From an uncultured Parvibacter sp. (GTDB lineage Bacteria > Actinomycetota > Coriobacteriia > Coriobacteriales > Eggerthellaceae): a stretch of DNA of 53,677 bases. The translations under genes and the position numbers were made by a program. The stretch is taken from contig CANSTH010000004.1 in NCBI GenBank assembly GCA_947649875.1, positions 1 to 53,677 of the forward strand, in the 5' to 3' direction. A model generated the notes under the pieces. That model did not search any database, was not told the DNA's origin, and saw only the letters and a list, made by a program, of their open reading frames with translations. Numbering within the stretch: the first letter of the stretch is position 1; each line of letters opens with the position of its first letter. Shown here piece after piece: positions 37,053 to 45,137 of the stretch.

Positions 37053-37437
37053 TTATGAGGGAATAGCTTGTGAGCGCGCCAGCCCAGTCGTGGGCGATGG
37101 TGCCATGCACCCAACTGCCGATCTTGACCATTACGGCAGGAGGCTTTCTTTCCCGCGAAGAATGTGCGAGCTCGAACGCTAGGCGGGTGCCATTTTGGTT
37201 CATGGCGTGACGGCCTGGATTTTCGGATTGCAAGTTTCCAAGGCGTTTTGGAACAGAGCGCTTTTGGTTCCATGGTTTGTCTCCTCGGCTCTGGTGCGCC
37301 CAGTTGCCTGCAGTTTCGCAGTTGATATCATGGCCACCGGCGAAAATGGCTCAGCGCTGGTGTGTTCCCCAACAAGGGACGCAAGTGGTGGTGCTTTTTT
37401 GCAGTCGATAGTTACGCTAATTGAAGGAGGTGAGAGG
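37053..37437. other. 385-bp spacer without recognisable gene
   Basis: No supported gene is seen. A short minus-strand frame here lacks a ribosome binding site. Upstream of the small gene there is a strong Shine-Dalgarno (GAAGGAGGTGAGAGG) but no clear promoter. Confidence 0.4.
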
Positions 37438-37716
37438 ATGTCGAAGAAGCCTAAGGCGAAAGTGCCGAAATCAGGTACGGTATGGCGCCAAACAGCCGAT
37501 GAAGCCACATTGGTCCAGAATCCGCGCTACAACGGTTTTGCTTGCGGCCATGGAGTCCATGGCGAAACGAAGTACAGCCGAGCGAAAGCCAAACGCGCTT
37601 GGCAAAAGCAACTGCGACAAGAAGGAGCCTCTCGGGCCCCCTTCCCTTTTCATGGGCTTGTATCCTCCTTTTGTGACCAGAATTGCGCGTTTTCGAGTTT
37701 CGGTTCCAAGCTCTAG
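37438..37716 (+). CDS. Small basic protein, copy 1; candidate self-limiting ribosome-rescue factor
   Basis: A frame of up to 92 residues starts at an ATG with GAAGGAGGTGAGAGG directly upstream. Residues 1-67 parallel copy 2 (44865): MSKKxKxKVPKxGxVWRQTA, DEATLxQNPRYNGFACGHG, then basic KYxRxKxxRAWQKQLRQEG. A hairpin with a T run falls inside the frame 183 nt from the start, exactly as in copy 2, so transcripts may end near codon 71 without a stop. In 21 compared codons 14 differ, 12 of them synonymously, so the protein is under selection. Small size, basic charge and in-frame terminator recall ArfA/BrfA. The rescue function is inference; the family is otherwise unrecognised. Confidence 0.7.
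   Translation: MSKKPKAKVPKSGTVWRQTADEATLVQNPRYNGFACGHGVHGETKYSRAKAKRAWQKQLRQEGASRAPFPFHGLVSSFCDQNCAFSSFGSKL
37621..37650 (+). terminator. Terminator-like hairpin inside small gene copy 1
   Basis: GAAGG pairs with CCTTC and, after a small internal loop, GCC with GGC around TCTCG, followed by CCCTTTT. It is weaker than in copy 2 but at the identical offset. It lies in the coding frame ahead of the stop at 37714. Confidence 0.55.
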
Positions 37717-44622: not shown

Positions 44623-44690
44623 CCGGGCATGGCGCACGTGATGCTTTCGCCTCGATGGTGGTGTTAGGTAAGGCACTCTGTCGGATTTGC

Positions 44691-44696
44691 TATAAT
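44691..44696 (+). promoter_or_regulatory. -10 box upstream of small gene copy 2
   Basis: A perfect TATAAT lies 18 bp upstream of a structured leader. The -35 region is weak (TTAGGT at 44664). Transcription would start just before the leader's first stem. Confidence 0.55.
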
Positions 44697-44713
44697 GCGC
44701 ATCCGCAAATGTC

Positions 44714-44825
44714 GAAGGTCGGGCCATTTGCCATCTTGCCGTTGGGGCATGATAGGGGATGACCCGTTTGTCGACTAGGGCAAAAGACAATGAGGCCGAA
44801 TCAGACGACAAATGATCCGACCTTC
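44714..44825 (+). ncRNA. Structured 5' leader of small gene copy 2
   Basis: GAAGGTCGG (44714-44722) pairs with CCGACCTTC (44817-44825). TTTGTCG (44767-44773) pairs with CGACAAA (44806-44812) inside. A third stem can form from ATCTTGCC and GGGCATGAT. The result is a nested multi-stem RNA of about 112 nt between promoter and Shine-Dalgarno, resembling a riboswitch or other cis-regulatory RNA; no known class was recognised. Confidence 0.5.
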
Positions 44826-44864
44826 AGCACTCAGCCCATCTGCGTTCGAAGGAGGTGAGAGGGC

Positions 44865-45137
44865 ATGTCGAAGAAGCGCAAGCGGAAGGTGCCGAAAACC
44901 GGTGCCGTGTGGCGTCAGACGGCAGACGAGGCCACGCTGGCCCAAAACCCCCGCTATAACGGCTTCGCCTGCGGCCACGGCGCCCATGGCAGTGCGAAGT
45001 ACAACCGCACCAAGGAAAACCGCGCCTGGCAAAAGCAACTGCGACAAGAAGGAGCCCCTCGGGGCTCCTTCCCTTTTCTTCGGTTGCGGTTGCTATGGCG
45101 AAGCGGTTGGCCAGTGCCCCTTCGCGCCTTCGTTTAG
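44865..45137 (+). CDS. Small basic protein, copy 2; candidate self-limiting ribosome-rescue factor
   Basis: A frame of up to 90 residues, paralogous to 37438-37716, with GAAGGAGGTGAGAGG before the ATG. It opens MSKKRKRKVPKTGAVWRQTA and contains CGHGAHG (one Cys, two His) and the basic KYNRTKENRAWQKQLRQEG. A strong intrinsic terminator (45048-45080) lies inside the frame, so most transcripts should end near codon 72 with no stop codon. The last 10 conserved codons (45027-45056) are identical to copy 1 at every base and use A-ending codons (CAA, CGA, GAA, GGA) unusual here, while upstream codons vary mainly at synonymous positions. This suggests RNA-level selection on the 3' part. ArfA-like rescue function is inference. 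Confidence 0.75.
   Translation: MSKKRKRKVPKTGAVWRQTADEATLAQNPRYNGFACGHGAHGSAKYNRTKENRAWQKQLRQEGAPRGSFPFLRLRLLWRSGWPVPLRAFV
45048..45080 (+). terminator. Intrinsic terminator inside small gene copy 2
   Basis: GAAGGAGCCCC pairs perfectly with GGGGCTCCTTC, then CCTTTTCTT. It starts 183 nt from the ATG and precedes the stop codon at 45135 in the open frame. Confidence 0.85.

What the first reader, a model, noticed from the sequence alone, without database searches (positions are those of the whole stretch)
37438..37716. Second copy keeps the same terminator offset
A paralogue 7.4 kb away has its hairpin at the identical offset (183 nt) from the ATG. In 21 compared codons 14 differ, 12 synonymously, so the protein is selected. 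Yet the 30 nt leading into the hairpin (37600-37629 and 45027-45056) are identical, including A-ending codons rare in this genome. That switch from synonymous drift to full nucleotide identity points to an RNA-level constraint at the 3' end of the conserved part. Recent gene conversion is a less likely alternative.
Basis: seen in the sequence. Interest (0 to 1): 0.78.

Follow-up and report, generated by a model that had tools for sequence, protein, structure and literature searches.

The report
Stop-less ribosome-rescue gene pair (candidate)
Two copies of a small bacterial gene end in a transcription-stop hairpin before any stop codon is reached, the design seen in emergency ribosome-rescue genes of E. 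coli and Bacillus, and relatives carrying this gene never carry the usual rescue enzyme ArfB, so it is probably a new rescue factor family of gut actinobacteria.

Summary
In detail: both copies (37438 and 44865, a Parvibacter-like Eggerthellaceae genome) have the hairpin 183 nt after the ATG, and 37600-37629 equals 45027-45056. In all 55 distinct full-length homologues from Eggerthellaceae the frame stays open through the terminator, and homology ends at the T-tract. Synonymous suppression is real but confined to the hairpin arms (codons 62-64: 0.16 of expected, and 67-68). The 21 nt leading in vary freely across the family (1.06), so the proposed 30-nt constraint is mostly refuted. Hairpins covary. 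The protein is basic (net charge about +12), lacks Pfam, NCBIfam, PHROGs or PDB relatives, and shows no detectable relation to ArfA. The genome has tmRNA, SmpB and two RF1/RF2-class proteins, no ArfA and no ArfB. Across 395 genomes of the order, none of 66 carriers has an ArfB-like gene, while about 143 non-carriers do. Best reading: a tmRNA-controlled, ArfA/BrfA-type alternative ribosome-rescue factor, unrelated in sequence to ArfA. Rescue activity itself is inferred, not shown.

The parts
37423..37437 (+). Shine-Dalgarno block GAAGGAGGTGAGAGG of the second copy
   Evidence: sequence; the block is shared by the genus and an AGGAGG-type site precedes nearly every homologue start
37438..37629 (+). 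conserved coding part (64 codons) of the second, non-syntenic copy
   Evidence: 81% identical to the other copy; dN/dS 0.06; 55-member alignment
37621..37650 (+). in-frame terminator-like hairpin plus CCTTTT, weakened 3' arm
   Evidence: fold -11.5 kcal/mol, z 0.35; two mismatches in the family structure
37651..37716 (+). unconserved frame beyond the hairpin up to the first stop codon (37714-37716)
   Evidence: homology ends at the T-tract
44848..44862 (+). Shine-Dalgarno block GAAGGAGGTGAGAGG of the first, syntenic copy
   Evidence: sequence; blastn homology between copies starts here
44865..45056 (+). conserved coding part (64 codons) of the first copy; shares its upstream neighbour with L003
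45048..45080 (+). in-frame intrinsic terminator GAAGGAGCCCCTCGGGGCTCCTTC + CCTTTTCTT, expected mRNA 3' end
   Evidence: fold -21.7 kcal/mol, z -3.2; among the strong terminators found in the window, the only one crossed by a short SD-led open frame; consensus scan; covariation
45081..45137 (+). unconserved frame beyond the terminator to the first stop codon (45135-45137)

Best explanation
Both genes encode a small, basic, conserved protein whose mRNA normally ends at an intrinsic terminator inside the coding frame, so that the message has no stop codon. SHOWN from sequence: the open frame through the terminator in the whole Eggerthellaceae family set, conservation and covariation of the hairpin, an abrupt end of homology at the T-tract, tmRNA and SmpB in the genome, and mutual exclusion with ArfB. 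INFERRED: ribosomes that translate this mRNA stall at its 3' end. In healthy cells tmRNA/SmpB tags the product (tag GKKSYQSAPALAMAA) and it is destroyed. [quoted passage not shown] It would thus be a self-limiting back-up ribosome-rescue factor that works like ArfA/BrfA, and takes the place of ArfB in these genomes.
For: No in-frame stop up to the hairpin end in any of 55 distinct homologues, against 17 and 9 of 55 in the other two frames over the same 45 nt. Hairpin pairs covary: 18 both-sided changes in one class (99% paired) and 17 in a second, 0/500 shuffles each. Homology runs from the SD to the T-tract and stops there. More distant relatives keep the design with quite different hairpins, e.g. 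L106 GAGAGCCTCCGAAACGGAGGCTCTTTT and L107 with a GGAGGGCG..CGCCCTCC stem and TTTTTT. The own genome has tmRNA and SmpB, two RF1/RF2-class proteins and no further one, and the genus has no ArfA. 0 of 66 carriers has an ArfB-like gene, while 162 of 395 order genomes match the ArfB model at E<=1e-7 (143 at E<1e-8); naive P 4e-15, or 0.002 outside Eggerthellaceae. Net charge averages +12; the predicted C-terminal helix 42-63 has pLDDT near 84. BrfA has the same arrangement of an intrinsic terminator inside its frame, with tmRNA-dependent degradation (PMC6881298).
Against: No detectable sequence relation to ArfA (hhalign probability 0.2%), to Pfam or NCBIfam families or to any PDB chain. No expression data: termination at the hairpin is predicted, not measured, and the T-tract (CCTTTTCTT) is only moderate. 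The 37438 copy has a weakened hairpin. Two distant relatives (L108, L110) have an ordinary stop codon, so the design is not universal in the wider family. About 60 Eggerthellaceae genomes have neither this gene nor ArfB, so no back-up of these kinds is obligatory. The ArfB exclusion is inflated by shared ancestry, and the ArfB-like proteins score below the NCBIfam cut-off.
Confidence: 0.72

Rival explanations
1. A small basic protein of other function (for example RNA- or ribosome-binding, or a stress protein) that is merely kept at low level by non-stop decay through tmRNA; not a rescue factor.
For: No sequence link to a known rescue factor. Two distant relatives lack the non-stop design, so the protein can exist without it.
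Against: Mutual exclusion with ArfB is explained by a rescue role and not by a random one, and it also holds for the relatives that have stop codons. The size and positive charge fit rescue factors. The two well-described genes with this design, arfA and brfA, both encode rescue factors.
Confidence: 0.17
2. The open frame is a regulatory leader: translation into the hairpin lets RNA polymerase read on into a downstream gene (translation-coupled attenuation).
For: Reading frame and terminator overlap; ribosomes near the hairpin could melt it.
Against: No downstream same-strand gene is shared by more than 3 of 55 loci, and neighbours differ throughout. The peptide is under strong amino-acid selection (dN/dS 0.05-0.22) along 64 codons. 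Homology stops at the T-tract.
Confidence: 0.05
3. Ordinary protein gene: transcripts read through the weak hairpin and the protein ends at the distal stop codon.
For: An in-frame stop does occur later (37714, 45135), and the T-tract is interrupted.
Against: The extension is random in length (first stop 75 to 561 nt after the anchor) and sequence, while the hairpin itself is conserved by compensatory change.
Confidence: 0.04
4. One reading: a separate RNA element of about 30 nt leading into the hairpin is under nucleotide-level selection.
For: The 30 nt are identical in both copies and in a third gene of another species (L003) although codons 1-54 are diverged up to saturation.
Against: Codons 55-61 show no synonymous suppression in the family (1.01 in all, 1.06 in the same hairpin class). 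Only the 9 nt that form the hairpin arm do.
Confidence: 0.04

Closest known systems
BrfA (YqkK), Bacillus subtilis
   Same: Small basic protein; rho-independent terminator inside the coding frame before the stop codon; about 62 codons before the mRNA end; tmRNA and RF2 in the genome; Gram-positive host (PMC6881298)
   Different: No BrfA chain among profile hits in the PDB. BrfA has an N-terminal alpha-helix and a Lys-His motif; this family has a basic N-terminus, invariant W16, P29, N32 and R48 and a predicted long C-terminal helix. Host is Actinomycetota
ArfA (YhdL), E. coli; Pfam PF03889
   Same: Non-stop mRNA, tmRNA control, 55-72 aa basic protein; P-x-[F/Y] followed by a basic stretch is superficially similar (inspection only)
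   Different: No Pfam ArfA match in 55 members or in the genus; hhalign probability 0.2%. ArfA is recorded from Gamma/Betaproteobacteria and the B. subtilis group, and from 1 of 3,213 Actinobacteriota (PMC11633108)
ArfB (YaeJ)
   Same: Apparent functional replacement: distribution is mutually exclusive
   Different: ArfB has its own GGQ hydrolase domain; this protein has none. The ArfB-like genes of the order are GGQ-containing open frames
ArfT, Francisella
   Same: Small basic RF-dependent rescue factor (PMC6299226)
   Different: ArfT is 40 aa and apparently not controlled by a terminator or RNase III in its frame; no relation tested by sequence here

Membership tests
ArfA family (PF03889) | Sequence match to the ArfA model | tested here: not met
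   0 of 55 members match even at E<=1; no PF03889 match in the genus while the E. coli control rings; hhalign 0.2%
ArfA/BrfA kind (tmRNA-controlled rescue gene on non-stop mRNA) | Transcription terminator or cleavage hairpin before any in-frame stop codon | tested here: met
   55/55 distinct homologues; covariation
ArfA/BrfA kind (tmRNA-controlled rescue gene on non-stop mRNA) | tmRNA and SmpB present in the same genome | tested here: met
ArfA/BrfA kind (tmRNA-controlled rescue gene on non-stop mRNA) | Partner release factor RF1/RF2 present, no own GGQ motif | tested here: met
   two PF00472 proteins in the genome; no GGQ in the protein
ArfA/BrfA kind (tmRNA-controlled rescue gene on non-stop mRNA) | Transcript ends at the hairpin in vivo; product tagged by tmRNA | not testable with these tools
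   needs 3'-end mapping and western or mass spectrometry
ArfA/BrfA kind (tmRNA-controlled rescue gene on non-stop mRNA) | Peptidyl-tRNA release on non-stop ribosomes; synthetic lethality with ssrA/smpB loss | not testable with these tools
   bench test; indirect support from exclusion with ArfB
BrfA family | Sequence or fold match to BrfA | tested here: inconclusive
   profile search of PDB to E 10 lists no BrfA or ArfA chain, but no BrfA sequence was aligned directly and the AF2 model is weak (pLDDT 63)
ArfB family (NF006718) | GGQ hydrolase domain | tested here: not met
   no family match and no GGQ

The most novel reading that the evidence does not exclude
An independently evolved family of tmRNA-controlled, release-factor-dependent ribosome-rescue factors, the first of this design recognised in Actinomycetota (Coriobacteriia). 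It repeatedly replaces ArfB, and some relatives (L108, L110) have regained or kept a normal stop codon and so escape tmRNA control.
Probability: 0.6. Interest if true: 0.85.

Novelty: new variant of a known kind. Interest (0 to 1): 0.74.

Why it matters
A published survey finds ArfA in 1 of 3,213 Actinobacteriota genomes, RqcH in none and ArfB in about 70% (PMC11633108), so how the rest survive failure of trans-translation is open. This family gives a concrete, testable answer for many gut Coriobacteriia. It would also show that the trick of leaving the stop codon off a rescue gene arose again with an unrelated protein. The genomic signature (short SD-led frame open through a conserved terminator) could be used to find more such factors.

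Tried and rejected
Pfam, NCBIfam and PHROGs scans: nothing. PDB profile search: only chance hits. ArfA hhalign: no relation. Phage, plasmid and viral collections: no homologue, so not a mobile-element gene in those collections. Rfam: no match in the window. AlphaFold model: only the C-terminal helix is usable, so no fold search was run. Shared downstream gene as sign of attenuation: none.

Full report
WHAT IS THERE. The window lies in an Eggerthellaceae genome whose nearest named relative is Parvibacter caecicola (same genus). Two open frames of 64 conserved codons start at 37438 and 44865, each behind the block GAAGGAGGTGAGAGG. They are 81% identical as proteins. The hairpin begins 183 nt after the ATG in both copies, and 37600-37629 equals 45027-45056. 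Outside that stretch the copies are diverged: over codons 1-54, pS 0.71 and pN 0.12, dN/dS about 0.06 with dS saturated. The 44865 copy shares its upstream neighbour with the related genome G079 (L003). The 37438 copy does not, and its synonymous sites are near saturation against all three others, so it looks like an extra, older or imported copy.

THE MISSED POINT. Neither frame has a stop codon before the hairpin. The hairpin is translated in frame as EGA-S/P-RGSFPF, and the first stops come at 37714 and 45135. In a normal gene the stop codon precedes the terminator. I collected homologues from 57 of 138 family genomes. For the 55 distinct full-length genes a terminator-like hairpin lies about 39 nt after the conserved KYNR, and no in-frame stop occurs before the hairpin ends; the first stop is 75 to 561 nt after that anchor where the contig reaches it. 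Over the 45 nt that span the hairpin, 0 of 55 sequences have a stop in the coding frame, against 17 and 9 in the other two frames. blastn between the loci of the genus starts at the SD block and ends at the T-tract. Among the strong terminators of the window that my scan found, only the one at 45048 is crossed by a short SD-led frame; the other frames crossing a hairpin cross weaker hairpins.

Synonymous scan over the alignment. For the hairpin class of the window, observed/expected synonymous difference is 0.88 (codons 5-54), 1.06 (codons 55-61), 0.16 (codons 62-64) and 0.00-0.12 (codons 67-68); codons 62-69 are the hairpin. So suppression begins exactly at the hairpin arm, and the 21 nt before it are free in the family. 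Their identity between the two copies also extends to L003, and nearly to L004, so inheritance within the genus, a genus-specific preference, or conversion of the 3' end remain possible; I cannot choose between them. The hairpin itself is under selection for pairing. In the 24-nt class 99% of cells pair with 18 both-sided changes. In the 28-nt class 88.6% pair with 17 both-sided changes. Both beat 0/500 shuffles on these measures. The shuffles do not remove relatedness, but the slid controls, which do keep it, fall to 42-75% and 39-58%.

DISTANT RELATIVES. Profile searches find 66 carriers among 395 genomes of the order: 57 in this family, 4 in a second family (f6) and 5 in a third (f4); one of the five, G286, is weak and was not inspected. 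An even sample of 396 genomes of the phylum gave hits only in this family. The f6 relatives (L103-L106) and two of the f4 relatives (L107, L109) keep the frame open through a hairpin, with different hairpin sequences and in L106 a different offset. Two other f4 relatives (L108, L110) have an ordinary stop codon and no such terminator. Two Eggerthellaceae copies are decayed (L074, L075).

WHAT THE PROTEIN MAY DO. It is short, strongly basic (mean net charge +12), with invariant M1, W16, P29, N32, G39, G42 and R48, and it has no match in Pfam, NCBIfam, PHROGs or PDB. AlphaFold gives a usable helix only at residues 42-63 (pLDDT about 84; mean 63). The two well-described genes with this architecture are E. 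coli arfA and B. subtilis brfA. brfA has an intrinsic terminator inside its frame, makes a roughly 62-codon non-stop product, is destroyed through tmRNA, and accumulates when SmpB is lost (PMC6881298). Positively charged C-terminal extensions that enter the mRNA channel are common to ArfA, BrfA, ArfB and SmpB (same paper).

GENOMIC SUPPORT FOR A RESCUE ROLE. The own genome has tmRNA (tag GKKSYQSAPALAMAA), SmpB and two RF1/RF2-class proteins; the genus has no ArfA and no ArfB-like protein. The assembly is 86% complete, so absences are checked on its two relatives, which agree. In this family 18 genomes have a third, ArfB-like protein with GGQ and a basic tail; none carries the non-stop gene (P 3e-5 by genome, 0.03 by genus). 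Over the order, 162 of 395 genomes match the ArfB model at E<=1e-7, a few of them perhaps only through RF1/RF2, and 143 match at E<1e-8. None of the 66 carriers is among them, including all 9 outside this family (naive P 4e-15; 0.002 outside the family). Within genus g90, G208 has the small gene and no ArfB while G306 and G720 have ArfB and not the gene. Ancestry inflates these P values, but several separate lineages show the exclusion.

HOW IT MOST LIKELY WORKS. Shown: frame, hairpin, selection, gene content. Inferred: transcription stops after the hairpin; the ribosome reaches the mRNA end and is rescued by tmRNA, which tags the product for destruction; if trans-translation fails, untagged product accumulates, binds non-stop ribosomes through its basic C-terminal helix, and recruits a release factor, probably RF2. 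About 85% confidence for the non-stop, tmRNA-controlled expression; about 70% for the rescue function.

MEMBERSHIP. It works like ArfA/BrfA in design but is not a member of the ArfA family by any sequence test here. Whether it shares a remote origin with BrfA is open, because no BrfA sequence was aligned directly.

Noticed in passing
44688-44827: Long 5' leader of the first copy: extended -10-like TGCTATAAT at 44688-44696 and a long inverted repeat GAAGGTCGGgcCATTTG / CAAATGatCCGACCTTC ending near 44827 (fold z -1.9). No blastn homology to this stretch in L003.
   Followed up: partly
L108 and L110: Relatives of the protein in two genomes of another family (f4) have an ordinary stop codon and no terminator in frame, so the same protein exists with and without the non-stop design.
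   Followed up: partly
L074 and L075: Decayed copies (frameshift or truncation) that keep the hairpin.
   Followed up: yes
L054 and L055: Second copy of G079 is identical over the gene and frame to that of a genome from another genus: binning contamination or recent transfer.
   Followed up: no
Eggerthellaceae genomes such as G011, G022, G024-G027: About 60 genomes have neither the ArfB-like gene nor this gene; they may hold a further rescue factor.
   Followed up: no
44848-44862 and 45048-45054: The 7-mer GAAGGAG of the Shine-Dalgarno block is repeated as the hairpin 5' arm, so the hairpin 3' arm could pair with the gene's own SD; not kept in the other hairpin class.
   Followed up: no
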